Of a stretch of 64,000 nt of DNA, positions 31,886 to 48,380 are shown piece by piece; the first letter of the stretch is position 1; each line of letters starts with the position of its first letter. The position numbers and the translations under genes were made by a program. Under the pieces are notes generated by a model that did not search any database, was not told the DNA's origin, and saw only the letters and a program-made list of their open reading frames with translations. This DNA comes from Brachycybe producta (Eukaryota; Arthropoda; Diplopoda; Playtdesmida; Andrognathidae). The DNA is taken from contig JAUPFP010000001.1 in assembly GCA_036925085.1 (NCBI GenBank), positions 20,919,229 through 20,983,228 on the forward strand, given 5' to 3'.

Positions 31886-32785
31886 TGTAACATCCCCGTT
31901 TCCGTAGGGTTAGTAGAGAGATCTCTACTAGCCATCTAGAAGTGTCGAATGGATGTTGATGATTAAGTCTTTCGGTCTATTGGCTCCTGTGTTGCACACT
32001 TAACCACCAGGGACACAAGGGTCGGTACCTCAGGAGACCTGTGGTAGAGAATATTGTAGAGATGTCGTCTTACACTCGGCTGCTGGAGACTTCGTCGTCC
32101 GGTGGAAACATCGGCTACGTGGCGGCTATAATTCTAAGTCCCACTCCCATAAAATGACTGAGTCCACACATTGAATTCGTATGTTGAAAATGCTCTTTTA
32201 TTCAATAAACAGAGAGTCCTGTAGATTGAGAGATATCGCATCGGTCTTAAGCATAAAGACGGTCTGTCCGATCTGCCTGATCTATCCGATCTGTCCTCTC
32301 AATCTACAACCTCTTGTATTTATACTCAAAATACAATACAAACATCTGATTATGATAACAAAGGCTCCAGGTGTGTCCAAGTCTCTTGGACACACTCGGA
32401 CCTAGAAGTGAGCTATCACTTCACTAAAACGAAAACATCTATAAGATGTATAAATTATAACAATACAGAAGGATCTTCGTTGATCCTTCTTCAAACGATA
32501 ACAATACAATTTAATTACGAAAAGGACTTCTGTATCCTTTTCGTCACACTTGACCGGTGTTTCACTGGCCAAAAGTTCTATATCGTCAATTCTTCTAGGA
32601 ATTATCCTATAAGAATTGACGATACAATTCATTTGCCGTCTTTTCCTCATCCTGTAGGGTAGGGAGGTATCGTCTGGATAACCTCCCGCCCACCCCCAAG
32701 CATGAGGTGAAACCCATCGATCAAAATACTTAAAACTACAGGGTGTTTCAATACGACAACGAATTCTGACGATGAATTCGTTACA
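31886..32785 (-). repeat. 3' LTR
   Basis: 900 bp, TGTAAC...GTTACA. On the minus strand it starts directly after a GGGGGG tract. Positions 32,402-32,785 are also the last 127 codons plus stop of the pol-frame ORF. Contains the same TATA box (32,317-32,324) and AATAAA (32,197-32,202) as the 5' copy. Confidence 0.95.
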
Positions 32786-35700
32786 CCCCCCAACTAGTTT
32801 ATAAGCACGTCCCTGTGCTTCCAAAAATAAGACCTTGCAAAAATACCCATTGGTATAAAATTTAGGCATGCAGTAAAAATACAAAACGAAAAGTATAAAA
32901 ATACTAGAAATGTGTTCCGAATAAATGCAAGCGTGCATAAACAAAACAAGTAGGGAAATACTCAAAACGATAAACACAAGTATAAAATAGTACTTAAAAA
33001 TACAAAGTCCAAGGCCTCTAGTAGTCCAAAATGGCTCATCCTTGAGCAGGATCTTCTTTGCTCCTGCGCAAGTCTCTTTCCAGAAGGATGGCGGTTTCGG
33101 CAGACCTTCGGTGACTTCGGTGACTTTTGCGTTCCTCTGCATGACTGCTGGTCTCGTCAAAAAGGATGTAGGTCCAGGAGACGTTACAGAAGCCCTAGGA
33201 CTCCCAGGAGCTTCCATATTGCTCCTGGCGGTAGTCTTCGGCTCCGTTACTTCGACGTCGTCCTTGTATGTTGGCCCAGGCTCACGAGGGCGGACATCCT
33301 TCAGTTTTACTCGATTATTTGGCCCATGATGAGAGAAGCTGTGGATTTCCAACCTTAATTGATTCCTCAGGCCTCTGTTGAGTCGGTTTCGTTTGACGAG
33401 AGGCCTTCGTTGCCTCCAACGCCAAACTCCGCGAACCAACAGGTCTTCTGTGAGACCTGAGTTGGCAATCTCGACTGGAAGGGCAGCCCCCTTATTTTCC
33501 ATAAACCAGCCATCGTAATCGCACACGATGGTAAACCAAATTTGCATAAGTAAAACAAAACTTTTGATCCTTTCCGTAATCGAGCGATAGAAATTTTCAC
33601 AATTTTCCACGATGGATGGGTGAAAACTTTTCAAAACAAAAAGATGATGAGAAATAGTGCCTGTACATGTGTTCAACACATGGGCAAAGCTGTCAGTGAT
33701 GAAGAACATAAACAATAGGACCCGGATCCATAGTGGTGCGAGGCTAGTTGACAATTCACTGAATGTATCCCTCCGCCCACGTGTTTCTTCCATGCTTGGT
33801 AGCGTCATTGACCGCTCCCTGTTTACTTCCTCATTTGGGACGTCATTTCCATTTGTGGCGTCACTAGCATCGATATCATCGTCCATTTTTGTTGTTTCAT
33901 CGATAACTTCCGCGTTTTTCACCTCCATTTGAAATTCCATCGGCGAATTTACATCTTTTTCGTCGATTTTCATCGTTTCTTCAGGAATTTCGCTGATTTC
34001 TTCAACAAATCCAATGGTTTCCATGGTAAAATTCGTCTTGTTACCATATTCTCTGGTGAATTTCATCGCATCTTCGCCAGGTAAGTATGAGAATTGCTGC
34101 TGGTTATCGTCTGCTGCCATTTTTCTTCTAATTTCGACGTTACGGTCAGAATGCTTTCGGATTGCTTTCGTAATTATCTCAATTTCTTCTTCATCCTCAG
34201 AAGATTCGATCCAAGCATTTTGGCATCTGCAGTATCCACAACATCTCTTCTTACGCGAAGGTAAGTTTTTCTTCTTGACAAACGCTGTCATTTCTTTTTC
34301 TTTTGCAGGTTCCGATTCGGATTCTTCTGGCGATGAGTTACCCATGGACTCCAGGGTGTCTCCAGTCGTTGGAACATTGGGTCCGTCTTTTTGGTAAGTC
34401 TCATATAGTGGTCTCAGGTTTGCAACGTTTACAGAGTCCTCCACTAATCTTCCAGCTCGATTCTCGTAACTCAATCGGTATACGGTGTCCGATACCTTCG
34501 ACACAATCGTATATCCCTGTCTCCATTTCGTTAGGAACTTCTTGTTCTGTCCAGGCCTGATTCGCATGTCTCGTACAAGTACTTTCTGTCCGATTTGGTA
34601 CTCATAAGGCTTCTTATGCCTTTGATCGTAGTACTTCTTTCGACGATCATGTGCTGCTTTCAGGTTCGCCCTGGCTGTTCTTAGTTCTTCTTCTTGGCGT
34701 TCCTCCGCCTGTTGTCGAACGTCCACGAGGTTTCCTGCCTCGTTATCCACGATAACTGGTCGTTCTGGAACTAAGGTGTCTACTTTAGTTCTGGGCTCCC
34801 TCCCAAACATGAGTCTGTACGGCGTAAACTTCGTGGATGAATGTACAGATGAGTTGTACGATTCCAGAACTTCATCCAGGTTTGTAGCCCAATCAGTCTG
34901 GTTCTTCGCAGGAGTCAGATACTTTTTCATCGTCTGAATAATGCTTTTATTCGTCCTTTCGGCGAGACCATTACTCTGCGGATGGTATGCAGTTGTTGTT
35001 TCGTGCTCTATCTTGTTTATTTTCAAGAATTCTTGAGTGTTCTTCGCAACAAACGGCGTCCCTCGATCCGAAATGAGTTTCTCTGGTATCCCGAAGATTC
35101 TCTTTACGTCTTTTGCTAGGAAGTTCATTACGATTAGTGCGGTTGTGCTTTTTACTGCTTTAGCAACGCAATATCGAGTGGCGTAATCGACTGCCAACAA
35201 GATGTGCTTGTTTCCTCCAACCGACGGTACTAATGGTCCAATGAAATCCATTCCCCAGCAATCACAAGGCTTTCCAATGGGCATTTCTTGAAGGAACCCT
35301 TCAGGTTTCTCCGTACCCAACTTGTGTAATTGACAAATCTCACATGAGCGCACATATTCGAATATGTCGTGCTTCATGTTATTCCAATAAAATCTTTGCC
35401 TGGCTCGATTCCAGGTCTTAGTTTGTCCCTCATGACCAGCATCGGGCTCGTCATGGCATAATCTCATTACTTCTGGGATGAGATGTTTTGGCACCACATT
35501 CACGAGTGTGGGTACGGAACTTCCGTGAAACACACAAGCGAACAACTTGTTGTCGTAATCGCAAAACAACTTATGAAGAGGTGACTCTGGTTGGTTACGC
35601 AACTCCTCACGAATCTTCAAAATCTCGGGGTCCAATTTTTGCTCCACCTTCCAATCCCATTGTAAGGTTACATTAAAGATCACACTGTCATCTAGGTCTT

Positions 35701-38700
35701 CCGCTTCTGGGATGGCCTTCCAGTTAACAGGCACTCCTGCTGGATATCTTGAGAGGCAATCGGCTTCGACGTGAAGTTTCCCCTCTTTGTAGATGATTTT
35801 GTAGTCGTACTCCTGCATTAGCAGCTGCCAGCGACCAAGTCTTCCTTCTAGACGTGCTGCAGTTTTCATGTAGCATAATGCGTGGTGATCCGTCACAATT
35901 GTAAAGGGCTTCTGGAACAGGTACGGCCGGAACTTGGTGACTCCATAGATTACTGCTAGGCACTCCTTATCCGTCGTACTGTAGTTCTTTTCCGCGTCCC
36001 TTAGAACTCTGGAGACACTTCCAATGATCTCCTTTCTTCGTTTATCCTCTGACTTCTGGTAAAGCATTGCTCCAATTCCGTATCCACAGGCATCAGTATG
36101 CATAAATATTGCAGCCTTCGGATCATATACGGCAACCAATGGAGATTTCGACAACATATTCTTTAGCGTGCGGAATGCATTCTCGCAGTCAACTGACCAT
36201 TCGAACGGTATATCTTTACCCGTCAGGTCTGACATGGGCTTCGCTATGTTGGCAAATCCAGGTACATGCTTTCGATAATAACCCGCCAATCCAAGGAAAC
36301 TTCTGATTGCGGTTACATTGTCAGGAACTGGGAAGTTCTTTATGGCGACAACCTTATCTGGATCTGGCCGAATTCCATCAGGCGAGATCAGGTGTCCCAA
36401 ATACTTCACTTCTTGGAATCCAAAGAAGCATTTCCCTGGATGCAACTTCAGGTTTGCTGTCCTCAGCAGGTCCAAGATAGTTCTCAGTCTTTTCAAAAAT
36501 TCTTCGAACGTTCTTCCAAACACTACGATGTCATCAAGGTAGACAAGGCACGTTTCCCATTTGTGCCCGGCGAGTAGGATGTCTAATGCACGTTGCATAG
36601 TGGCAGGAGCGTTTCGGAGTCCGAAAGGCATTCTTACGAACTCGAACAATCCTCGATGAGATGTAAATGCGGTCTTCTCGATGTCGCTTTCTTCCATCTC
36701 GAACTGCCAGTATCCACTCTTCATATCCAGCGTTGCGAAGTAGCATGCTCCTCTCATGGAGTCTAATGCGTCATCAATCCTCGGTAATGGATAAGTGTCT
36801 GCCTTTGTAATCGCGTTCAACTTCCGATAATCTACACAGAAACGGTAGGAGCCATCCTTCTTCTTTACAAGGACGATGGGCGATGCATACGGCGATTTCG
36901 ATGGCCTTACAACCCCAGATTTCTTCATCTCCTCTAGCGTCTCATCAATTACGATGCGTTCCCCAGGCCCGCATCTTCGTAACGTGTCTCGAACAGGTAG
37001 ATTATCTCCAGTTTCGATCTTGTGTTTGGTCAGATTCGTAGCTCCCAGGTCCTTAGATGAAAAGGCGAAGATCGGTTGGAACTCCTTCAGTAGGATCGTC
37101 AACTCTTCTCTTTGATCATCTGTCAGTTCAGGACCAAGTTGAATTTCTCTTTCAAAATCAACGGGTGCTTCTCCGATGTCTCTAAAGTTTTCCTCTTCGG
37201 AAACTTTGCAGGCTTGCTCTTCTTCTAGTTCTTCTAGAAGTTCGAAGTGTCCAATAGTCTCGCGGTCTCCAATCCCCACGGACTCCAGTGTGGTATTCAG
37301 GAGTTGGACTTCCAGTTGTGATGTTCCATTCCCTTGTAGCACACTGCTGGCCACAACGATGCCTTTTCGATTAAAGAGACTATCGTTCGTTTCAATCATG
37401 AGTACTTCGTTTTCCTCAATGATCCGCCCTGCAGCTACTTTGAGGTTCAAAGCCTGGCCCGGATTTAACGTAATCCTTCCTTGGGCTTTTACGCAGCTTT
37501 CCTCTCTAGCTTTTATGGCATAGGAGTTATCCAGATGGCTATTCTGAGCACATCCCTCCTCTTTTAATTCTTTGAAGAAATTCCAGGGAAGGCTACTACG
37601 CGCACTTCCTTTCTTCAACAATTCTCGTGTTCCTTCGTAGAACATCTCATTAGCAAAGTAGATCTTGGAGGTCTTCATGGAAATGATGAGATCAAATGCA
37701 GCTCCCAGGTCTCTCCCCAGCAGTGCTTCTCGTTTTCCATCTATGATGAGCATCCTTGCCGTTACTTGCTTTCCGTTCAACTCGAACGTTGGCCACAACT
37801 GACCAAGTACCTTAATCGGTACCCCTCCTACTGCGCCTAATGCAGGTGCGTTCCGGATTGGTCCATATCGAAGTCCGTACTCTTTGGCCATTGTGCCTGA
37901 CAAGATAGTGAACCCAGTTCCGCTATCCGCCAAAAATCGAACTGGTGTGCCGTCAACCTGAATGGTAATCTTGGCAACATTCTCATCGGGCGTAGTATCT
38001 CCTACCTCGATGAGTTCGCATGAGGTGAGTAGGCTGTCTACAGTGATTTCGACACTCTTTCGACAACAAGCCCTACTCCTCAATAAATCTCCAACTTCAA
38101 CGGATTCAATAACCTCGCTGTTCGCAGGGATCCTGCTGGTATCATCTCCTCTACCGATAGCTGCATTTACAATAGCCTTCTTGGATTTCTTAGCATCAGT
38201 TTCGGCCTTGCCCGAGGCAATAACATTGGATGTTACATCTTGAGGGATTTCCTGAGCAACATTGCTTATCCCCGGTATACACGCCGCAGAATTCTGTTGG
38301 GTCCTTCCCTCAATTCCGACTGGCACCGCAGAATTCTGTTGGGTCTCTCCCTCAATTCTGTCTTGATTAACTCCAGTTTCCATGGCTTCCACAATTCTCT
38401 TTGCTTCCTCCAAGCTATTCGCGTAAACTACCATAGCTTTCGTAGGTGACCAGATGATGGGTTCCGGAAATATCTCCTCGATGATTTCTCCCCTTCGACC
38501 AGTATCCTTTCGCAGCTTCTTATATTTTCGTGAATTCCGTTGTCGTTTTCCATTCGTAATGCCGACTAACAACTCCGACGATTGCTCAGGGAGTCCTTGA
38601 GTGTCCAAATCACATGGTCTCTTCGGTGCTCCAGCCTTTGGTCTAGTTGTGGTGACATTCGAAATGCCGACTAACAACTCCGACGATTGCTCAGGGAGTC

Positions 38701-38920
38701 CTTGAGTGTCCAAATCGCATGGTCTCTTCGGTGCTCCAGCATTCCGTCTAGTTTTAGTGACATTGGTAGCTTCGCTCACGCCCCTATTCCCCCCCAACAA
38801 AGCTTTGTCCACAATGTTTTGGGAATTGGCGATCGCTGTTTCGTTTCGATTTTGTCGTTTTCCAGAGGGTTTTCCGTTCTTAAAGGGCGGTAGGCCCCTC
38901 TTTACTGCCACCCTTTCTAG
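32402..38920 (-). CDS. pol: Pol polyprotein with long C-terminal extension (retrotransposon)
   Basis: Reached by -1 frameshifting from gag; there is no ATG at the front, the first start-like codon being GTG at 38,911, from which residues are numbered (2169). Protease has D329-S-G and an LLGRDLG motif. RT (about 650-830) has YLDD at 791-794. RNase H has D940, E983 and D1008. Integrase has H1153, C1190 and C1193 of the HHCC finger and a D1222, D1282, E1318 triad with 35 residues between the last two. The C-terminal integrase module ends near 1502. No chromodomain is evident. About 667 further residues follow: an acidic stretch, a CCGYCRC cluster, hydrophobic segments near 1724-1744 and 1967-2013, and from 2043 sequence encoded by the 3' LTR. 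A 35-residue unit is tandemly duplicated at about 51-120. The extension's role is unknown; an envelope-like function is only one possibility. Confidence 0.95.
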   Translation of the reverse strand, partial: LERVAVKRGLPPFKNGKPSGKRQNRNETAIANSQNIVDKALLGGNRGVSEATNVTKTRRNAGAPKRPCDLDTQGLPEQSSELLVGISNVTTTRPKAGAPKRPCDLDTQGLPEQSSELLVGITNGKRQRNSRKYKKLRKDTGRRGEIIEEIFPEPIIWSPTKAMVVYANSLEEAKRIVEAMETGVNQDRIEGETQQNSAVPVGIEGRTQQNSAACIPGISNVAQEIPQDVTSNVIASGKAETDAKKSKKAIVNAAIGRGDDTSRIPANSEVIESVEVGDLLRSRACCRKSVEITVDSLLTSCELIEVGDTTPDENVAKITIQVDGTPVRFLADSGTGFTILSGTMAKEYGLRYGPIRNAPALGAVGGVPIKVLGQLWPTFELNGKQVTARMLIIDGKREALLGRDLGAAFDLIISMKTSKIYFANEMFYEGTRELLKKGSARSSLPWNFFKELKEEGCAQNSHLDNSYAIKAREESCVKAQGRITLNPGQALNLKVAAGRIIEENEVLMIETNDSLFNRKGIVVASSVLQGNGTSQLEVQLLNTTLESVGIGDRETIGHFELLEELEEEQACKVSEEENFRDIGEAPVDFEREIQLGPELTDDQREELTILLKEFQPIFAFSSKDLGATNLTKHKIETGDNLPVRDTLRRCGPGERIVIDETLEEMKKSGVVRPSKSPYASPIVLVKKKDGSYRFCVDYRKLNAITKADTYPLPRIDDALDSMRGACYFATLDMKSGYWQFEMEESDIEKTAFTSHRGLFEFVRMPFGLRNAPATMQRALDILLAGHKWETCLVYLDDIVVFGRTFEEFLKRLRTILDLLRTANLKLHPGKCFFGFQEVKYLGHLISPDGIRPDPDKVVAIKNFPVPDNVTAIRSFLGLAGYYRKHVPGFANIAKPMSDLTGKDIPFEWSVDCENAFRTLKNMLSKSPLVAVYDPKAAIFMHTDACGYGIGAMLYQKSEDKRRKEIIGSVSRVLRDAEKNYSTTDKECLAVIYGVTKFRPYLFQKPFTIVTDHHALCYMKTAARLEGRLGRWQLLMQEYDYKIIYKEGKLHVEADCLSRYPAGVPVNWKAIPEAEDLDDSVIFNVTLQWDWKVEQKLDPEILKIREELRNQPESPLHKLFCDYDNKLFACVFHGSSVPTLVNVVPKHLIPEVMRLCHDEPDAGHEGQTKTWNRARQRFYWNNMKHDIFEYVRSCEICQLHKLGTEKPEGFLQEMPIGKPCDCWGMDFIGPLVPSVGGNKHILLAVDYATRYCVAKAVKSTTALIVMNFLAKDVKRIFGIPEKLISDRGTPFVAKNTQEFLKINKIEHETTTAYHPQSNGLAERTNKSIIQTMKKYLTPAKNQTDWATNLDEVLESYNSSVHSSTKFTPYRLMFGREPRTKVDTLVPERPVIVDNEAGNLVDVRQQAEERQEEELRTARANLKAAHDRRKKYYDQRHKKPYEYQIGQKVLVRDMRIRPGQNKKFLTKWRQGYTIVSKVSDTVYRLSYENRAGRLVEDSVNVANLRPLYETYQKDGPNVPTTGDTLESMGNSSPEESESEPAKEKEMTAFVKKKNLPSRKKRCCGYCRCQNAWIESSEDEEEIEIITKAIRKHSDRNVEIRRKMAADDNQQQFSYLPGEDAMKFTREYGNKTNFTMETIGFVEEISEIPEETMKIDEKDVNSPMEFQMEVKNAEVIDETTKMDDDIDASDATNGNDVPNEEVNRERSMTLPSMEETRGRRDTFSELSTSLAPLWIRVLLFMFFITDSFAHVLNTCTGTISHHLFVLKSFHPSIVENCENFYRSITERIKSFVLLMQIWFTIVCDYDGWFMENKGAALPVEIANSGLTEDLLVRGVWRWRQRRPLVKRNRLNRGLRNQLRLEIHSFSHHGPNNRVKLKDVRPREPGPTYKDDVEVTEPKTTARSNMEAPGSPRASVTSPGPTSFLTRPAVMQRNAKVTEVTEGLPKPPSFWKETCAGAKKILLKDEPFWTTRGLGLCIFKYYFILVFIVLSISLLVLFMHACIYSEHISSIFILFVLYFYCMPKFYTNGYFCKVLFLEAQGRAYKLVGGCNEFIVRIRCRIETPCSFKYFDRWVSPHAWGWAGGYPDDTSLPYRMRKRRQMNCIVNSYRIIPRRIDDIELLASETPVKCDEKDTEVLFVIKLYCYRLKKDQRRSFCIVIIYTSYRCFRFSEVIAHF
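32786..32791 (-). other. Polypurine tract
   Basis: On the minus strand GTTGGGGGG abuts the TGTAAC start of the 3' LTR, where plus-strand DNA priming is expected. It is short, and also codes for the V-G-G of the pol-frame ORF. Confidence 0.6.
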
Positions 38921-38926
38921 TTTAAA
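38882..38926 (-). promoter_or_regulatory. -1 programmed frameshift signal, gag to pol
   Basis: Gag codons 562-565 read GAT TTA AAC TAG, so heptamer T TTA AAC (38,926-38,920) is in the canonical X XXY YYZ register, directly before the gag stop. The pol frame is -1 relative to gag and is open only from this heptamer (TGA just upstream). Downstream AAAGGGTGG (38,916-38,908) can pair with CCGCCCTTT (38,890-38,882) across a 17-nt loop, with one G-U pair. Confidence 0.85.
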
Positions 38927-40611
38927 TCAGCCGGGTTTTCCTCTCGCAGGAACTTCTTCTGCCCGTTCTCGCTGACGACAAAATACTGCTGGCCATTTTT
39001 CCCAGTGGCCATTCCATGTTGAACAAGTCCAACGGTTCCATCCGCGACTACTTTCTTTGGGCAGTTTCTTGAAAAGTGACCCTTCTCATGACAGTGATAA
39101 CACTCTACTGCGCTGAGATCTTTCAGGGTTTTACTTCCATCTTGCGTTTGCTGACCATTGTAGTTCTTCTTCTGCGGATATCTTTGGTTCCATTTACGAC
39201 CTTGTTGCTGATTCGAGTTCTGGTTGGTCTTCTGTTGCGCTTGGTCATTTGAATTTGATGGAGTCGAGTTGTTCGTTGGGTCCGCTTGATCTTGAGTAAC
39301 AACCGCGTAAGAACGTCCTCCGTCCATTACTGCTTGTGTCGGTTTGGCATTTTGGCGTTGGTTATTCTTCTGTGGACCCTTGGAGACCTGGGTCGTTGCT
39401 TGTTGACCCATCGTTCCTTCCGGTATCCATAACCCATCAGCCATCAAAACTTCCTCGGTATCCTTGATATATGTAGTGTACAGCTTCAGATTGCTATTCG
39501 GCGCATTCTGTGTAGCATTACGTATAATCGGATGAAGTTTCTGCCGAAATTCCACAATCCGGTATTTGTCGGTTACCCCCGGTAACACTTTTCTACTCAA
39601 GTCAAGGTAGCGACCCAAAAACTGATTGGTGTCCTCTCCTTTCCTTTGGAGCATGGTATCCAACCTCAGCTTCAGTTGCACTAACTCGTCTCGACGTCCA
39701 AATCTTTCAATTAACTCGCTCCGTATGAAGTCCCACGTGGTTTTCCCTCTATTCTCTTTGTAGAAATTGGATAACCAACGTACTACGTCCCCTTCTACCG
39801 CCTTACGTAGGTAGTAGGTCTTGTGGACGTTGCTCCAGTCCTCCAGATCTGCGATACTCTCGTAGTCCTCCAGAAAGGTGTATACAGACGTCAATCCTTT
39901 GAAGGTCTCCAGATTCCGGAGTGGGTGAAGACTCTTGTACTTCCCATCCAGCTCCTCACAGGTCCGATGACGATTGCAAATTGGATTTCCTTCCAGCTCT
40001 TCTACGCTGGGATCCTCACTTGTTAGGCTTTCATCCTCTAGCTGGTCCGGGTTCTCTCTCCGTAGAATAGGAGTCTCAGGTAGGCGACCTCTCTGGGTCC
40101 CTCCACTCTTCTTCAGCATGAGCGGCGTCTGGAATACATTAACCTGTCTTAGGTTTTCAGCGTGGGCCGACGAGGGCTCCCCTTCAGTGTCCAATCCAGG
40201 AATCACTGTATGACGCTGAGATTCAGCGTGGGCCGACAAGGGCTCCACTCCGGTATCCACTTCTCGGACTACCGTATGACGCTGAACTGTACTTACACCA
40301 CGCCCGCTCCGGAGTAACATCGATCCTGATGGTTGCTGGGCTTCGAACCAGGCCATCAGTCTCTCCCGTCTTTCAGCACTTAGATTTTGAAGGATACCTT
40401 CAAGTGGATCTTCTCCATCCATTTGGTTTGTATCGTCCTTCTCCCGTGTCTTCGACTTCGATTTCGGTCTGCCTTTCTTTCCTTTACCACCTGGTGTAAC
40501 TCCGACATCATTGGTATTCTCTACTGGATCTGTAGTGAGGTACCCCGCACCTCCACCATTTTGTAACATCCCCGTTTCCGTAGGGTTAGTAGAGAGATCT
40601 CTACTAGCCAT
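38917..40611 (-). CDS. gag: Gag polyprotein (retrotransposon)
   Basis: 564 codons from ATG at 40,611, which lies 50 nt inside the 5' LTR, to TAG at 38,919. The N-terminal region is basic (KGKKGRPKSKSK near 40-55). A 22-residue unit starting QRHTV is tandemly duplicated at 110 and 132. Residues about 228-380 form a helical Gypsy capsid-type domain. A Q/N-rich linker leads to one CCHC zinc knuckle: C504, C507, H512, C517. The frame from 40,611 crosses the LTR end and the primer-binding site. The next in-frame ATG after the LTR is near codon 65, so the true initiation codon needs testing. Forms the capsid that packages element RNA; stop is bypassed to make Gag-Pol. Confidence 0.93.
   Translation of the reverse strand: MASRDLSTNPTETGMLQNGGGAGYLTTDPVENTNDVGVTPGGKGKKGRPKSKSKTREKDDTNQMDGEDPLEGILQNLSAERRERLMAWFEAQQPSGSMLLRSGRGVSTVQRHTVVREVDTGVEPLSAHAESQRHTVIPGLDTEGEPSSAHAENLRQVNVFQTPLMLKKSGGTQRGRLPETPILRRENPDQLEDESLTSEDPSVEELEGNPICNRHRTCEELDGKYKSLHPLRNLETFKGLTSVYTFLEDYESIADLEDWSNVHKTYYLRKAVEGDVVRWLSNFYKENRGKTTWDFIRSELIERFGRRDELVQLKLRLDTMLQRKGEDTNQFLGRYLDLSRKVLPGVTDKYRIVEFRQKLHPIIRNATQNAPNSNLKLYTTYIKDTEEVLMADGLWIPEGTMGQQATTQVSKGPQKNNQRQNAKPTQAVMDGGRSYAVVTQDQADPTNNSTPSNSNDQAQQKTNQNSNQQQGRKWNQRYPQKKNYNGQQTQDGSKTLKDLSAVECYHCHEKGHFSRNCPKKVVADGTVGLVQHGMATGKNGQQYFVVSENGQKKFLREENPADLN
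40539..40558 (-). other. Primer-binding site, tRNA-Ala-like
   Basis: Three nt after the 5' LTR the minus strand reads TGGTGGAGGTGCGGGGTACC. Its complement, GGTACCCCGCACCTCCACCA, fits the 3' end of a eukaryotic tRNA-Ala plus CCA. The tRNA identity is from general knowledge and not checked against this genome. Confidence 0.75.
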
Positions 40612-40872
40612 CTAGAAGTGTCGAATGGATGTTGATGATTAAGTCTTTCGGTCTATTGGCTCCTGTGTTGCACACTTAACCACCAGGGACACAAGGGTCG
40701 GTACCTCAGGAGACCTGTGGTAGAGAATATTGTAGAGATGTCGTCTTACACTCGGCTGCTGGAGACTTCGTCGTCCGGTGGAAACATCGGCTACGTGGCG
40801 GCTATAATTCTAAGTCCCACTCCCATAAAATGACTGAGTCCACACATTGAATTCGTATGTTGAAAATGCTCT

Positions 40873-40878
40873 TTTATT
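40873..40878 (-). terminator. LTR polyadenylation signal
   Basis: AATAAA on the minus strand, about 115 nt after the TATA box, so it would lie in R. The functional copy for the genomic transcript is the 3' LTR one at 32,197-32,202. Confidence 0.6.
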
Positions 40879-40992
40879 CAATAAACAGAGAGTCCTGTAG
40901 ATTGAGAGATATCGCATCGGTCTTAAGCATAAAGACGGTCTGTCCGATCTGCCTGATCTATCCGATCTGTCCTCTCAATCTACAACCTCTTG

Positions 40993-41000
40993 TATTTATA
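40993..41000 (-). promoter_or_regulatory. LTR TATA box
   Basis: GAGTATAAATACAAG on the minus strand, predicting transcription start about 25-30 nt downstream near 40,965. The copy in the 3' LTR is at 32,317-32,324. Confidence 0.7.
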
Positions 41001-41461
41001 CTCAAAATACAATACAAACATCTGATTATGATAACAAAGGCTCCAGGTGTGTCCAAGTCTCTTGGACACACTCGGACCTAGAAGTGAGCTATCACTTCAC
41101 TAAAACGAAAACATCTATAAGATGTATAAATTATAACAATACAGAAGGATCTTCGTTGATCCTTCTTCAAACGATAACAATACAATTTAATTACGAAAAG
41201 GACTTCTGTATCCTTTTCGTCACACTTGACCGGTGTTTCACTGGCCAAAAGTTCTATATCGTCAATTCTTCTAGGAATTATCCTATAAGAATTGACGATA
41301 CAATTCATTTGCCGTCTTTTCCTCATCCTGTAGGGTAGGGAGGTATCGTCTGGATAACCTCCCGCCCACCCCCAAGCATGAGGTGAAACCCATCGATCAA
41401 AATACTTAAAACTACAGGGTGTTTCAATACGACAACGAATTCTGACGATGAATTCGTTACA

Positions 41462-41522: not shown

Positions 41523-41693
41523 GCAGCTGGTTGGCCCATGGCAGAGGGATCTTAAGATCCAAGTGCTGCAAGATGCAGTGTCAACATATAATTATAAACA
41601 AAAAAATTAACCAAAAACATATTTGTTTTTTTTGTGATATTCGCTTTTATAAAAACGGTCTAAAAAGTTAAAAAAAATTGTAATCTGTTCTTG

Positions 41694-42075
41694 TCTTGTT
41701 GGTGTAGTGGTTAGTGTCTCAGCCTGTGGTTATATTGGTCATGGGTTGAATCCCGTGCCGTGTGAATTATTTTCAAATATATTTCAGAAGGTGGCAGTGG
41801 ACAAACTAACCAGTTATGAAGTTAAATAAAAGCGAGTAATAAAAGAACAAATTCTAATCTGTTCTTGTCTGGTTGGTGTAGTGGTTAGTGTCTCAGCCCG
41901 TGGTAATCTTGGTTCTTGCGGTGGGAATTGCGGTGGACAAACAAACAAATTATGAAGTTAAAGAAAAGCAAATAAAAACAAAACAAAAAATATAATCTGT
42001 TCTTGTCTTGTTGGTGTAGTGGTTAGTGTCTCTGGCCATGGCAGTGTTGGTCATGGGTTCAATCCCATGCAAATA
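41694..42075 (+). repeat. Three tRNA-like units (SINE heads or tRNA pseudogenes)
   Basis: CTTGT(C/T)TGGTTGGTGTAGTGG-type starts at about 41,694, 41,864 and 42,001. Each contains a TGGTGTAGTGGTTAGTGTCTC A-box region; units 1 and 3 have B boxes GGGTTGAATCCC and GGGTTCAATCCC, while unit 2 has lost its B box. Spacings are about 170 and 140 bp, with a shared AACCAGTTATGAAGTTAAA linker between units. Acceptor stems do not pair well, so none is called a functional tRNA. Confidence 0.6.
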
Positions 42076-43314: not shown

Positions 43315-43774
43315 GTTATATATTATTAATTAATTATTATTTTATTAACCCTGGTACTAACCCTGGTTACTACATGTAATGTTCACAGCTAGTTTTATTG
43401 GGGGGGGGGGGGGGGTATTACGTTCCTATTGGCCAAAATCAAATCGACCAAAGCTAATAGCAACGACCCATCGAACTTTTGAAATAATGTTGGAACCTAG
43501 TGCAAAGGACAGGTAGTTACAAATAGGTGAAAACTTCAGTTGGCTCCGCCCTTGTTATGACGACCGGCAACTTCTAATTGGTTGGTTATGTAAAGACAGG
43601 AATTATTCTCGCCACACCCACCCAAAGGGTATAAGGGCTGGTTGGTTATGTAGTCTGACATCACATGCTCTGCCCCTTTTCAACGTCGAACCACACAACA
43701 AACCAATTAGAAATTGCCGGTCGTCATAATAAGGGCGGAGCCAACTGAAGTTCTCTCCGATTTCTAACTGCCTG
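43315..43774. repeat. Left arm of an inverted duplication, with MITE
   Basis: Reverse-complement match to 47,984-48,380: TTATTAATTAATTATTA, AACCCTGG, ACATGTAATGTTCACAG, a 16-G run, CCAAAATCAAATCGACCAAA, AATAATGTTGGAAC, GTGCAAAGG, then a MITE (43,509-43,774). The MITE carries an extra about 50 bp (GACAGGAATTATTCTCGCC... GGGTATAAGGGC) also seen near 60,460. Confidence 0.8.
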
Positions 43775-44057
43775 CTTGGGCTGACAAAATTTTCGATATT
43801 TTAATATTGTGATATGTCGAATAATATCGACACTCGATATATTGAAAAAAATCGAAAAATCGGAAAAATCGGAAAAACCAAAATATCGAAAAACCAAAAA
43901 GAATCGAAAAAAATCGTAAAATCGAAAAAAAAAAATCAAAATATCGAAGTAACGAAAATACATATAAAAAAAATATTTGAAGGTTTTTGCAATTCAATGT
44001 GCAAAATTGCTAGCATGTAAGTTAGTTCATGCATAATAAAGTTGGTAATTCTAGAGG

Positions 44058-44491
44058 TAGGGACGATTCCTAAATTTTCTCGAATCCGAATCCGAATAAT
44101 AAAAAGTTCTCGAATCCTTCATATAAGAATCCAATATTATTCATTAAGAAAATACAAATAAATGAAATAATATTAAATATTAAATTATTAATAATAATAA
44201 AACACAGTGTGGCTGCACTCAGGGTCGTCGCCACAAGGTGATATTCGTGATCCGGATACCACCGAAATTGCAACAATCGCCGGGTTTTTATTGTTAGTTT
44301 GAACGCTTCTTATTGTGGACGTCAATGGAGTTAAAACTAATTTTGCCAAAGTTTTTAACCGTTTTTTTTTTAGGTTAGGATTCGAAAGAATCGAACAAGA
44401 CGAGAAAAAAAAAGCGCGAAGATTCAAGTTTTTGAATCTCGAATATTTTTCAAGATTCGCGCGATTCGAGGTTTCGAATGTGCCATCCCTA
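44058..44491. mobile_element. Family P element, near-complete
   Basis: TAGGGACGATTCC to GTGCCATCCCTA, with GAATCC-rich arms and a GATCCGGATACCACCG centre. The TAGGG...CCCTA ends suggest hAT, but no 8-bp duplication is visible. Confidence 0.6.
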
Positions 44492-44639
44492 GCTATTTAC
44501 TATTTAGAATTTCAAGTTTTCAGGCGTTGAATTCAGCTCTCTAACCACTGATAACCATGATTTTTTTACTTTATATAAAAAATGAAATAAAAACTGCTTT
44601 ACATATTTAAATACATTTGAGTATGTTTACAATCATCAC

Positions 44640-46200
44640 AAATACTAGTTTAGATTAATTTTCGATTTTTTTTCGATATTTCGATTTTTTTTTTCGATAT
44701 TTTGATTTTTTTTTTCGATATTTCGATTTTTTTCGATATTTTGATTTTTTTTTTCGATATTTCGATTTTTTTCGATATTTTGATTTTTTTTTATATTTTG
44801 ATTTTTTTTTTCTCGATATTTTAATTTTTTTTTTTCGATATTTTGATTTTTTTTTTTTTTTCGATATTTTAATTTTTTTTTTTTCGATAGTTTGATTTTT
44901 TTTTTCGATAGTTTGATTTTTTTTTCGATAGTTTGATTTTTTTTTTCGATAGTTTGATTTTTTTTTCGATAGTTTGATTTTTTTTTTTCGATAGTTTGAT
45001 TTTTTTTTTCGATAGTTTGATTTTTTTTTTCGATAGTTTGATTTTTTTTCTTCGATAGTTTGATTTTTTTTTTCGATAGTTTGATTTTTTTTTTCGATAG
45101 TTTGATTTTTTTTTCTCGATAGTTTGATTTTTTTTTTCGATATTTTGATTTTTTTTTTCGATATTTCGATTTTTTTCGATATTTTGATTTTTTTTTTCGA
45201 TATTTCGATTTTTTTCGATATTTTGATTTTTTTTTATATTTTGATTTTTTTTTTCTCGATATTTTAATTTTTTTTTTTCGATATTTTGATTTTTTTTTTT
45301 TTTCGATATTTTAATTTTTTTTTTTTCGATAGTTTGATTTTTTTTTTCGATAGTTTGATTTTTTTTTCGATAGTTTGATTTTTTTTTTCGATAGTTTGAT
45401 TTTTTTTTCGATAGTTTGATTTTTTTTTTCGATAGTTTGATTTTTTTTTTCGATAGTTTGATTTTTTTTTTCGATAGTTTGATTTTTTTTCTTCGATAGT
45501 TTGATTTTTTTTTCGATAGTTTGATTTTTTTTTTCGATAGTTTGATTTTTTTTTTCGATAGTTTGATTTTTTTTTCTCGATAGTTTGATTTTTTTTTTCG
45601 ATATTTTGATTTTTTTTTTCGATATTTCGATTTTTTTCGATATTTTGATTTTTTTTTATATTTTGATTTTTTTTTCTCGATATTTTAATTTTTTTTTTTT
45701 CGATATTTTGATTTTTTTTTTTTTTTCGATATTTTAATTTTTTTTTTTTTCGATATTTTAATTTTTTTTTTTTTCGATAGTTTGATTTTTTTTCTCGATA
45801 GTTTGATTTTTTTTTTCGATAGTTTGATTTTTTTTTCGATAGTTTGATTTTTTTTTTCGATAGTTTGATTTTTTTTTCGATAGTTTGATTTTTTTTTTCG
45901 ATAGTTTGATTTTTTTTTTCGATAGTTTGATTTTTTTTTTCGATAGTTTGATTTTTTTTTTCGATAGTTTGATTTTTTTTTTCGATAGTTTGATTTTTTT
46001 TTTCGATAGTTTGATTTTTTTTTTTCGATAGTTTGATTTTTTTTTCGATAGTTTGATTTTTTTTCTCGATAGTTTGATTTTTTTTCTCGATAGTTTGATT
46101 TTTTTTTCGATAGTTTGATTTTTTTTTTCGATAGTTCGATTTTTTTTTTCGATAGTTCGATTTTTTTTTTCGATATTTCGATTTTTTTTTTCGATTTTAG
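44640..46200. repeat. TCGATAGTTTGATTTTTTT satellite with higher-order structure
   Basis: About 75 units of roughly 20 bp, each a CGATA(G/T)TTTGA word followed by a T run of 7-14. A characteristic variant cluster (TTTATATTTTGATT then CTCGATATTTTAATT) recurs at about 44,792, 45,235 and 45,658. The array is therefore built from three amplified blocks of about 420-445 bp. Confidence 0.95.
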
Positions 46201-46264
46201 ATTTTTAAATATGAAAAATAAACATTATTGCCGCCATGACTTACTTGGGGCCATGACTTACTCG

Positions 46265-46470
46265 GCCCAAAATTACTTCGAGAAATCTCCACAAAGAGCG
46301 CTAGCATCGTTTTCCTATTGAGTCCATAGATCCAATATGTTAAAAAAAAGTGTTAATTTTTGAAATACACTTTCAAAAATTAACACTTTTTTTAACATAT
46401 TGGATCTATGAACTCAATAGAAAAACGATGCTAGCACTCTTTGTGGAGATTTCTCGAAGCAATTTTGGGC
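46265..46470. repeat. 100-bp-arm foldback
   Basis: The left arm starts GCCCAAAATTACTTCGAGAA and ends TTAATTTTTGAAA; a 5-nt loop TACAC follows, then a near-perfect mirror to CAATTTTGGGC. Only a few mismatches. One arm resembles a single-arm sequence at 12,999-13,110. Confidence 0.95.
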
Positions 46471-46593
46471 TGTATAACCTCTTAAGCGATGTGTGTGTAG
46501 GCCTAACTGATAAAACTACTTTACGAAGAATACGATTCGAAGAAAATACAAAAATTAAAAAAAAAAGTTAAATATGCATCAATGAAGTGTAAT

Positions 46594-47736
46594 TCATTTA
46601 GCAGATATTGCTTTCCATTCCGGTAAAAAGAACAACTCGTATGGTATCATCTGTATAAACTGCGAATTCGGTGGCATATAATCAGAAAGGTAAACAGTTT
46701 CTCCACCAGCCAAATAAGCGGTGAAAAATCCGTAAGTTCCAACACTTACGATGGAATGGTTACAATTGGACAACATTGCAAAGTCATGAATCGGATCATC
46801 GACGTTCCCACGACCGGCAAAGTAGACATCGCCTTTGGAAGCATTTATGTTCGCTTTGCACCACGGCATGTCGTCGCTGGACACTACAAACAAAGCATCC
46901 TCATATCTGAATCGAAAATGGTCCATGGCTTTCTGAAAATACCCATTGTCTCCAACAGTGCCATTGCGACCTTTACTGGTATGGAGATCAATGTAGTCCG
47001 TCCTTCTAACGTGGACACCGACAAACGTCGTACTGATCCGGCCAACAGAAATCTCTTCCAAGTCTTTGGTGACTTTGTCTAAAATGTGGTCGTGGAACGC
47101 AAACTCGCGAAGGATGTCCGAACGGATTGGATCGTAGTACTTCCACGTCGGTGGCACTTGAATTATCATCCAGAGGAATTTCCCATTTACATTAACGCAT
47201 ACATCATTTCGACGATATTGTGTCACGTCGACTGTCGTCAGTATTCGTGTCAGCTTATTCAAATCTTCGTTTTCCATGACCCGTAACGTGACTTTAAAGT
47301 ACTTTTGGAGAGCTTTGGCCATCGTTGGAATCATAAAAGCTGGTCTCCTGTAAACTTTTGCAAGAGCATACAGAGTAGCATACTCTGATATCATGTTGCC
47401 GAGTCTTCCACTGGGCCTTGCGATGATGGCACAGTTGACGTCCGTGGAAGACGTTCCGACAAGAATGTCCGCAAATTCTTCCATGGTAGCGATGGACTTT
47501 CCTTTGTTTAAGAGGGTCTCGTTATGTGTGAAGCACAAGCATTTTAAGTGCTTGTGGTTGTCATGATAAGAACAGAATGGTGTGTACCACTTGTTGTCCA
47601 ATGGCACTGTTGCGTTTTCCAGAGTCTTTAGACTCAAGTCCTTCACTTGTACTAAACAAGATTGTAAAACGAGGTAGGTTGTGATGCAAAGCGCAGCAAC
47701 CACAATGACCAGTTTCCATATATTTAGATTTTTCAT
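46594..47736 (-). CDS. Galactoside alpha-1,2-fucosyltransferase (GT11 family)
   Basis: 380 residues in one exon. It would transfer fucose from GDP-fucose to the 2-position of terminal galactose on glycans in the Golgi lumen. Residues 1-8 form a short cytosolic tail and about 9-24 a signal anchor, giving type II topology. A Cys-rich stem follows (C55, C66, C68). The GT11 fold shows S109-G-R-L-G-N114 and the motif H242-V-R-R-T-D247 that binds the GDP-sugar. Near the C-terminus are DFAMLSNCNHSIVSVGTYG and AYLAGG. Sequons include N41-A-T, N72-E-T, NGT, NAS and NHS. Length fits FUT1/FUT2-type enzymes. The Met at 47,736 directly precedes the anchor, and all motifs are intact. A MITE ends about 250 bp upstream and a foldback and satellite lie just downstream. 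Family is secure; exact acceptor is not. Confidence 0.93.
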   Translation of the reverse strand: MKNLNIWKLVIVVAALCITTYLVLQSCLVQVKDLSLKTLENATVPLDNKWYTPFCSYHDNHKHLKCLCFTHNETLLNKGKSIATMEEFADILVGTSSTDVNCAIIARPSGRLGNMISEYATLYALAKVYRRPAFMIPTMAKALQKYFKVTLRVMENEDLNKLTRILTTVDVTQYRRNDVCVNVNGKFLWMIIQVPPTWKYYDPIRSDILREFAFHDHILDKVTKDLEEISVGRISTTFVGVHVRRTDYIDLHTSKGRNGTVGDNGYFQKAMDHFRFRYEDALFVVSSDDMPWCKANINASKGDVYFAGRGNVDDPIHDFAMLSNCNHSIVSVGTYGFFTAYLAGGETVYLSDYMPPNSQFIQMIPYELFFLPEWKAISAK

Positions 47737-47983
47737 TATTTTTGACTTATTTTTCTTCTGAAATTCAAAACTTGATCACCATATATTTGAGTGACAGTAG
47801 CAACCAACATTTGCAGTGAAACAAAATAACACTTTTGTTTAGTCCAAATGTATTTAAAATATACAAAATAACAGGTGCTTAGAGACAATGATTTTAATAT
47901 ACTGAATCATCATAAATATAAAGCTGGTTCTACACGACGCGTGCACTTGTTTCATCTGTTAAGCATGAGAGTATTCTTTGCAC

Positions 47984-48188
47984 ACAGGCAGTTAGAAATA
48001 GGAGAGAACTTCAGTTGGCTCCGCCCTTGTTATGACGACCAGCAACTTCTAATTGGTTTGTTGTGTGGTTCGACATTGAAAAGGACGGAGCATGTGACGT
48101 CAGACTACATAACCAACCAATTAGAAGTTGCGTTCGTCATAACAAGGGCGGAGCTAACTGAAGTTCTCTCCTATTTCTAACTACCTGT
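47984..48188. mobile_element. MITE upstream of the fucosyltransferase
   Basis: ACAGGCAGTTAGAAATAGGA to CTAACTACCTGT, flanked by TCTTTGCAC and CCTTTGCAC (8 of 9). Contains GGCTCCGCCC, CCAATTAG, TGACGTCA and GGGCGGAGC. It starts 248 bp upstream of the fucosyltransferase ATG. Confidence 0.88.
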
Positions 48189-48380
48189 CCTTTGCACTGT
48201 TTTCCAACATTATTTCAAAAAGGGGGGGGGGGGGGTCGTTGCTGATAGCTTTGGTCGATTTGATTTTGGCCAATAGAAACGCAGTAACCCCCCCCCCCCC
48301 CGCCCAATAAAACTAACTGTGAATATTACTTGTAGAAAAAAAGTTGTGAATAATAGGGTTAATAAAATAATTAATAATAT
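48189..48380. repeat. Right arm of the inverted duplication
   Basis: CCTTTGCAC, CCAACATTATTTC, a G run, GGTCGATTTGATTTTGGCC, a C run, CAATAAAACTA and AATTAATAATATAT, mirror image of 43,315-43,508. Confidence 0.8.

What the first reader, a model, noticed from the sequence alone, without database searches (positions are those of the whole stretch)
38882..38926. Canonical -1 frameshift cassette joins gag and pol
Seen: gag reads GAT TTA AAC TAG, pol is in the -1 frame, and the pol frame is open only from the T TTA AAC heptamer because a TGA precedes it. A 9-bp stem (AAAGGGTGG with CCGCCCTTT, one G-U) starts 3 nt beyond the heptamer; if the first A-U pairs breathe, the spacer becomes about 6 nt. 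Known: U UUA AAC is among the most efficient -1 slippery sites. Having the gag stop as the very next codon is an elegant two-outcome design.
Basis: partly seen in the sequence, partly recalled or inferred. Interest (0 to 1): 0.8.

Follow-up and report, generated by a model that had tools for sequence, protein, structure and literature searches.

The report
Millipede retrotransposon's gag-pol frameshift signal
A young jumping gene in what is most likely a millipede genome carries a well-conserved signal that makes some ribosomes slip back one base between its two genes, a known trick of retroviruses and their relatives, here with a likely knotted RNA helper structure.

Summary
Confirmed. The window holds a Ty3/gypsy-type LTR retrotransposon on the minus strand (31886-41461, identical 900-nt LTRs). 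Gag ends GAT TTA AAC TAG; pol (2174 codons) lies in the -1 frame and opens at T_TTA_AAC, right behind a TGA; its first AUG is codon 165. A 9-bp stem starts 3 nt downstream. By COX1 the host is a myriapod, most likely a millipede. The 19-nt core occurs 112 times in its genome. Among diverged relatives (68-79% identical to relative L003) the heptamer is exact at 27 of 30 places fetched; a stop follows it in 24 of 25 aligned rows. The first 12 pol codons show 3% synonymous difference against 23-26% around them. Two further families (one measured at 60% RT identity) use G_TTA_AAC, pol in -1, a 5-nt spacer and another stem, differing between them by three compensatory changes. New member of a known kind; frameshifting was not measured.

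The parts
38920..38926 (-). slippery heptamer T_TTA_AAC
   Evidence: exact at 27 of 30 diverged places; zero synonymous differences in pol codons 0-7
38927..38929 (-). TGA closing the pol frame just upstream of the heptamer
   Evidence: TGA in 24 of 25 rows
38917..38919 (-). gag stop TAG, the codon right after the heptamer
   Evidence: stop in 24 of 25 rows: TAA 22, TAG 2, TAT 1
38902..38904 (-). second gag-frame stop TAA in the hairpin loop; closes the zero frame against readthrough
   Evidence: TAA in 25 of 25 rows
38908..38916 (-). stem 1, 5' arm AAAGGGTGG
   Evidence: 98.3% of cells paired in 39 distinct rows; all pairs in 35 of 39 rows
38882..38890 (-). stem 1, 3' arm CCGCCCTTT
   Evidence: one compensatory change (L080)
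38896..38901 (-). candidate stem 2 of a pseudoknot, 5' arm AGAGGG in the hairpin loop
   Evidence: 94.8% of cells paired, all pairs in 27 of 39 rows
38864..38869 (-). candidate stem 2, 3' arm CCCTCT
   Evidence: pol codons 18-22, which hold it, synonymous difference 0.05
38920..40611 (-). gag ORF, 564 codons without the stop, CCHC zinc knuckle; its first ATG lies inside the 5' LTR
32402..38926 (-). pol frame, 2174 codons: protease, RT, RNase H, integrase; the last 633 codons match no Pfam family; ends inside the 3' LTR
40562..41461 (-). 5' LTR, 900 nt, TGTAAC...GTTACA
31886..32785 (-). 3' LTR, identical to the 5' LTR; ATTC on both flanks (4-bp target duplication)

Best explanation
It is a programmed -1 ribosomal frameshift signal between gag and pol of a recently active Ty3/gypsy-type LTR retrotransposon of a myriapod, most likely a millipede. 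Most ribosomes read UUA AAC and stop at the adjacent UAG, giving Gag. A minority, held up by the RNA structure downstream, let the two tRNAs on U_UUA_AAC slip back one base (to UUU AAA), miss the stop and go on into pol, giving Gag-Pol. Shown here: the frames, heptamer, stops, possible stem pairing and their conservation in relatives. Inferred: that slippage occurs, its rate, and that the stimulator is an H-type pseudoknot (stem 1 of 9 bp, stem 2 of 6 bp; about 0.75 likely).
For: Geometry. 112 exact matches of the core, control 0. Heptamer exact at 27 of 30 diverged places. Synonymous difference 0.030 in pol codons 0-11 against 0.229 (codons 23-65) and 0.256 (gag upstream); lowest other 12-codon window 0.102 in pol, 0.186 in gag; permutation p 0.0005. 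Stem 1 98.3% of cells paired. Two more families with G_TTA_AAC, pol in -1, 5-nt spacer, hairpin and loop-downstream pairing, with three compensatory double changes in the stem, 0 of 500 shuffles, which 12 of 12 further family-3 copies carry. Zero frame closed by two stops, +1 frame by a TAA within the heptamer.
Against: No translation data. The nominal spacer is 3 nt, short of the 5-9 nt most studied (PMC5009743 passages); it needs the first A-U pairs open. In the window's family most stem-1 changes are one-sided, one is compensatory, and whole-structure counts do not beat column shuffles (50 to 193 of 500 as high). Stem 2 has no compensatory change there; it is incomplete in 12 of 39 rows, 4 of them one subfamily of about 10 places with a mismatch or bulge. 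A competing hairpin keeps 93% of its cells. In family 2 (L113) the pol frame has a Met at codon 17, so initiation there is not excluded for that family.
Confidence: 0.93

Rival explanations
1. Frameshifting occurs, but the stimulator is only the stem-loop; the loop-downstream pairing (stem 2) is chance or a by-product of the pol code.
For: Stem 2 in family 1 is complete in 27 of 39 rows, no compensatory change; the same geometry gives 6 bp at 625 of 8147 positions (7.7%) in gag-pol.
Against: Pol codons holding the stem-2 3' arm have low synonymous difference (0.05); 2.1% of synonymous redraws give 6 bp; families 2 and 3 have another loop arm and another matching downstream arm at the corresponding place.
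Confidence: 0.25
2. Pol is made from a spliced or separate RNA, and the heptamer is not used.
For: Nothing here excludes spliced RNAs; no RNA data.
Against: Nucleotide-level conservation centred on the heptamer and stem; the window's pol frame has no AUG for 164 codons; the same layout in three families.
Confidence: 0.04
3. Gag stop readthrough leads into pol.
For: A stop codon followed by a structured RNA is also the layout of readthrough signals (recalled).
Against: Pol is in the -1 frame, not the zero frame, and a second zero-frame stop follows 5 codons on, TAA in 25 of 25 rows.
Confidence: 0.01
4. The frame offset is a random indel in a dead copy.
For: Some relatives are decayed (for example L003).
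Against: 112 exact matches of the core; LTRs 100% identical; copies read from three families have the same offset.
Confidence: 0.01

Closest known systems
Gag-pol -1 frameshift sites of animal LTR retrotransposons (2003 survey, as told in PMC5009743)
   Same: Pol in the -1 frame, heptamer near the end of gag; 28 of 51 animal elements surveyed had pol in -1, many with classical heptamers (passages).
   Different: Host group (myriapod); comparative support for a pseudoknot; stop adjacent to the heptamer. I did not see the survey itself.
UUUAAAC / GUUAAAC frameshift signals of coronaviruses and arteriviruses
   Same: Same heptamers with H-type pseudoknots; tabulated spacers 3-7 nt (PMC3835772, part of Table 1 seen).
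   Different: Works like them; no relation by descent was tested or is claimed. Here the element is a retrotransposon with gag and pol.
[quoted passage not shown]
   Same: A stop codon stands directly after the slippery heptamer (PMC4373837 passages).
   Different: Different hosts; the heptamers and stimulators were not compared here.
CsRn1-like Ty3/gypsy elements (PwRn1, AgCR)
   Same: Ty3/gypsy elements; of 14 AgCR elements analysed nine have gag and pol overlapping by -1 frameshifting (PMC2582038 passages).
   Different: Clade membership of the window's element was not tested.

Membership tests
programmed -1 ribosomal frameshift signal | X_XXY_YYZ heptamer in the correct zero frame | tested here: met
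   T_TTA_AAC in gag frame; exact at 27 of 30 diverged places
programmed -1 ribosomal frameshift signal | downstream ORF in the -1 frame, without a start codon of its own near the junction | tested here: met
   window: first Met codon 165; in other families first Met at codon 17 (L113), 89 (L114), 110 (L117)
programmed -1 ribosomal frameshift signal | stimulatory RNA structure at about 5-9 nt | tested here: inconclusive
   stem present and conserved, but nominal spacer 3 nt in family 1; 5 nt in families 2 and 3
programmed -1 ribosomal frameshift signal | selection on the nucleotide sequence beyond the code | tested here: met
   permutation p 0.0005
programmed -1 ribosomal frameshift signal | measured frameshifting | not testable with these tools
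   needs a reporter assay or profiling
H-type pseudoknot | stem 1 supported by covariation | tested here: met
   families 2/3: three compensatory pairs, 0 of 500 shuffles, all in the one family-3 row; window's family alone: one compensatory pair, 112 of 500 shuffles as high
H-type pseudoknot | stem 2 supported by covariation | tested here: inconclusive
   no compensatory pair within families; arms differ between family 1 and families 2/3 and still match, but the correspondence across that gap was made by eye
Ty3/gypsy LTR retrotransposon | LTRs, CCHC gag, order protease-RT-RNase H-integrase | tested here: met
Ty3/gypsy LTR retrotransposon | RT falls in a named clade by phylogeny | not tested
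   120 best listed relatives 37-56% identical; names given by sources include Ty3-G, 297, 17.6 and 412; no tree made
Ty3/gypsy LTR retrotransposon | tRNA primer binding site after the 5' LTR | tested here: inconclusive
   no tRNA 3' end with up to 1 mismatch for the one register tried; other registers and primers not tried

The most novel reading that the evidence does not exclude
The three families are a natural series in which one shift site is kept while the gag stop moves: 21 nt downstream inside the pseudoknot loop (families 2, 3), or to the codon right after the heptamer with a conserved second stop still in the loop (family 1). The stop position may thus be a natural tuner of the Gag to Gag-Pol ratio, coupling termination to unfolding of the stimulator. 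Which state is ancestral is not shown.
Probability: 0.35. Interest if true: 0.5.

Novelty: new member of a known kind. Interest (0 to 1): 0.35.

Why it matters
It is a clean, comparatively supported frameshift cassette in an animal group for which my one search naming that group listed no such paper (12 of 438 papers listed, none holding the word millipede). The families in one genome give ready-made natural variants (heptamer U or G, stop at 0 or 21 nt, spacer 3 or 5 nt, different stems) for testing how stop position and structure set frameshift rates. It does not change what is known about how such elements express pol.

Tried and rejected
Wrong frames were translated at first and redone. 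IMG/VR gave no relative of the RT. Energy folding alone does not single out the stem in the window. A pseudoknot-folding routine was not available. Nematode host considered and set aside: no SL1 leader with up to 1 mismatch, and COX1 best hits are millipedes (Antrokoreana and Abacion 85%, both Diplopoda), with centipedes, insects and others at 79-83% among the 120 listed. The tRNA primer was not identified. The competing hairpin was counted: all pairs in 24 of 39 rows against 35 of 39 for stem 1. L115 was checked as a possible fused gag-pol: it is a family-3 copy with the cassette deleted, and its pol is still in another frame than gag. Readthrough, random indel and +1 shift rejected as told.

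Rows dropped before counts: 25 of 32 rows were used: window, L003 and 23 of the 30 fetched places (dropped: L094 without junction, and L092, L093, L098, L106, L107, L109, whose junction segments equal others'). Alignment A1 holds 39 distinct 131-nt segments; identical segments were merged, loci without the motif left out, and several loci overlap one place, so rows are not copy counts. The 30 diverged places come from the 50 rows; of the other 20 rows, 1 is L003 itself, 7 are young copies of the window's family, 10 are second pieces of other places, and 2 diverged places were not fetched. That search starts from junction DNA and so favours relatives that have a junction. In one search, 2 of 34 loci (L028, L070, one place) had no junction match.

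Full report
What is there. Two identical 900-nt direct repeats bound 31886-41461 (one search had shown 300 nt of them), begin TGTAAC and end GTTACA on the minus strand, and are bordered by ATTC on both sides. Between them, on the minus strand, lie a 564-codon gag frame with a CCHC knuckle and a 2174-codon pol frame with aspartic protease, RT, RNase H and integrase in the Ty3/gypsy order. The RT piece has 7148 relatives among the 7982 candidates scored; the 120 best listed are 37-56% identical, and names given by sources include Ty3-G, 297, 17.6 and 412. The genome has 295 Mb in 442 contigs. COX1 from it is closest to millipedes (Antrokoreana 85%, Abacion 85%, Narceus 83%; the first two are Diplopoda), while centipedes reach 82-83% in the same list, so the host is a myriapod, most likely a millipede; the species is not identified.

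The junction. Gag reads ...GAT TTA AAC TAG; pol is in -1 and opens with the TTT of the heptamer, directly behind TGA. The pol frame has no Met before codon 165, so AUG initiation near the junction is excluded here. The zero frame is closed twice (TAG, then TAA 5 codons on) and the third frame by the TAA inside the heptamer, so only a -1 (or +2) shift at the junction joins gag to pol.

Conservation within the family. The 19-nt core occurs 112 times exactly, reversed control 0; a 23-nt downstream piece with up to 2 mismatches 158 times, control 0. The 40 scored DNA matches (of 161 candidates) and the 86 scored RT matches (of 3150 candidates) are all 99-100% identical, so those copies are young and say little. 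Searching with the DNA of a decayed relative (L003) brought in diverged copies, 68-79% identical to L003. Of 30 such places fetched, the heptamer is exact in 27; L086 and L104 have single changes, L094 has no junction. In 25 aligned rows (7 dropped, see Tried and rejected) TGA precedes in 24, a stop follows in 24 (TAA 22, TAG 2, TAT 1) and the second stop is TAA in 25. Synonymous difference is 0 in pol codons 0-7, 0.030 in codons 0-11, 0.216 in codons 12-17, 0.05 in codons 18-22, 0.229 in codons 23-65 and 0.256 in gag upstream; the lowest other 12-codon window is 0.102 in pol and 0.186 in gag; a permutation of codon positions reaches the observed value with p 0.0005. Some rows are decayed copies, so this reflects mostly constraint on their active sources.

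Structure in the family. Stem 1: 98.3% of cells pair in 39 distinct rows; the changes are mostly to G-U or U-A, one is compensatory (L080). The whole-structure counts do not beat column shuffles (50 to 193 of 500 as high), because little varies, although percent paired and covariation score beat the slid versions (one slid version has more two-sided changes). A loop arm AGAGGG can pair with CCCTCT downstream (stem 2): 94.8% of cells, complete in 27 of 39 rows, no compensatory change; one subfamily (4 rows, about 10 places) has AGAGAG, a mismatch or a bulge. The chance of 6 bp there is 0.9% by base shuffle, 2.1% by synonymous redraw and 7.7% by position in gag-pol. Energy folding of one strand, which cannot make pseudoknots, prefers another fold of the window's sequence in 57 and 74 nt.

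Other families. A search with a Trichinella RT (P0009) brought up a second family (RT 60% identical to the window's over 351 residues). In its copy L113 gag (631 codons) and pol overlap by 78 nt with pol in -1; the gag frame has G_TTA_AAC, then 5 nt, then a hairpin with z -3.69. In L113 the pol frame has a Met at codon 17, so initiation there is not excluded. Its core occurs 128 times with up to 2 mismatches, control 0. A third family has the same layout with a different inner stem: L114, and 12 of 12 further copies fetched out of 39 other rows listed. On 25 rows of families 2 and 3 there are three compensatory double changes; 0 of 500 shuffles reach this. All three stand in the one family-3 row, so they are one lineage's changes, not three independent lineages. 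In both families the gag stop UGA lies in the loop, and loop CUGAG can pair with CUCAG 13 nt after the hairpin: all five pairs in 22 of 25 rows, L127 and L140 lack the last pair, L124 is rearranged. In L113, L114 and L117 the pol frame is -1 and open as far as each piece reads. No relative with gag and pol in one frame was seen among those read. L115 (family 3) has lost the whole cassette by deletion, and its pol is still in another frame than gag; L028/L070 is truncated before the junction.

Reading. The signal is a -1 frameshift site with, most likely, an H-type pseudoknot. With a stop in the next codon, eRF1 competes with frameshifting in a modified HIV-1 site (PMC4373837 passages), and the distance of the zero-frame stop affects frameshifting in coronaviruses, where it has moved stepwise and an old stop can still be seen (PMC8499926 passages). 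The second stop of family 1 may be such a relic; it lies close to the place of the gag stop of families 2 and 3, but I did not polarise the change.

What is known. -1 offset between gag and pol was found in 28 of 51 animal LTR elements surveyed in 2003 (PMC5009743, passages; part 1 of 2 of section 11 read). U_UUA_AAC is among the shiftiest sites on mammalian ribosomes (same paper). A stop adjacent to the site occurs in RSV and BYDV. Six literature searches were answered; only named millipedes, and none of the 12 papers it listed (of 438) holds the word. Except for the passages named, only listings were seen, and most subscription papers are not in the library. So: a new member of a known kind.

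Noticed in passing
31886-33651, against L110 (G000:C1:10659900-10663300): The window's copy shares 97% of pol with another copy down to about 33652; beyond that 1391 nt of the other copy are unmatched, then 344 nt match at 78%, then only a 33-nt match; the other copy's LTR was not delimited. Pol frames among the scored copies include a group of 2170-2174 and a group of about 2560-2582 codons, as if 3' modules had been exchanged between subfamilies.
   Followed up: partly
40562-40611: The first gag ATG lies inside the 5' LTR (50 nt from its end), and the pol frame ends 384 nt inside the 3' LTR; the sequence 3 nt after the 5' LTR, TGGTGGAGGTGCGGGG, matched no tRNA end in the one register tried.
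   Followed up: partly
32405-34303: The last 633 codons of the pol frame are open but match no Pfam family; hydrophobic stretches are visible by eye.
   Followed up: partly
38551-38760 and 40156-40285: Tandem repeats in the coding regions with spacings divisible by three: 105 nt twice in early pol (93%), 66-nt spacing twice in gag (80%).
   Followed up: no
L028 / L070 (G000:C5, about 263664-269000): A copy of pol truncated near its 5' end is joined to other sequence in an open frame reported as 4082 codons.
   Followed up: partly
41661-42070: Three copies of a roughly 98-nt unit resembling a tRNA-derived SINE (GTTGGTGTAGTGGTTAGTG...; the resemblance is recalled).
   Followed up: no
43401-48301: Two inverted arms (for example 43675-43774 and 47985-48084, 95%) enclose a 4-kb stretch rich in T-runs and an ORF of 393 codons: possibly another mobile element.
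   Followed up: no
L112 (G000:C1:12697416-12698753): A nearly full COX1 copy with one TAA lies in a 22-Mb contig, probably a nuclear copy of mitochondrial DNA.
   Followed up: no
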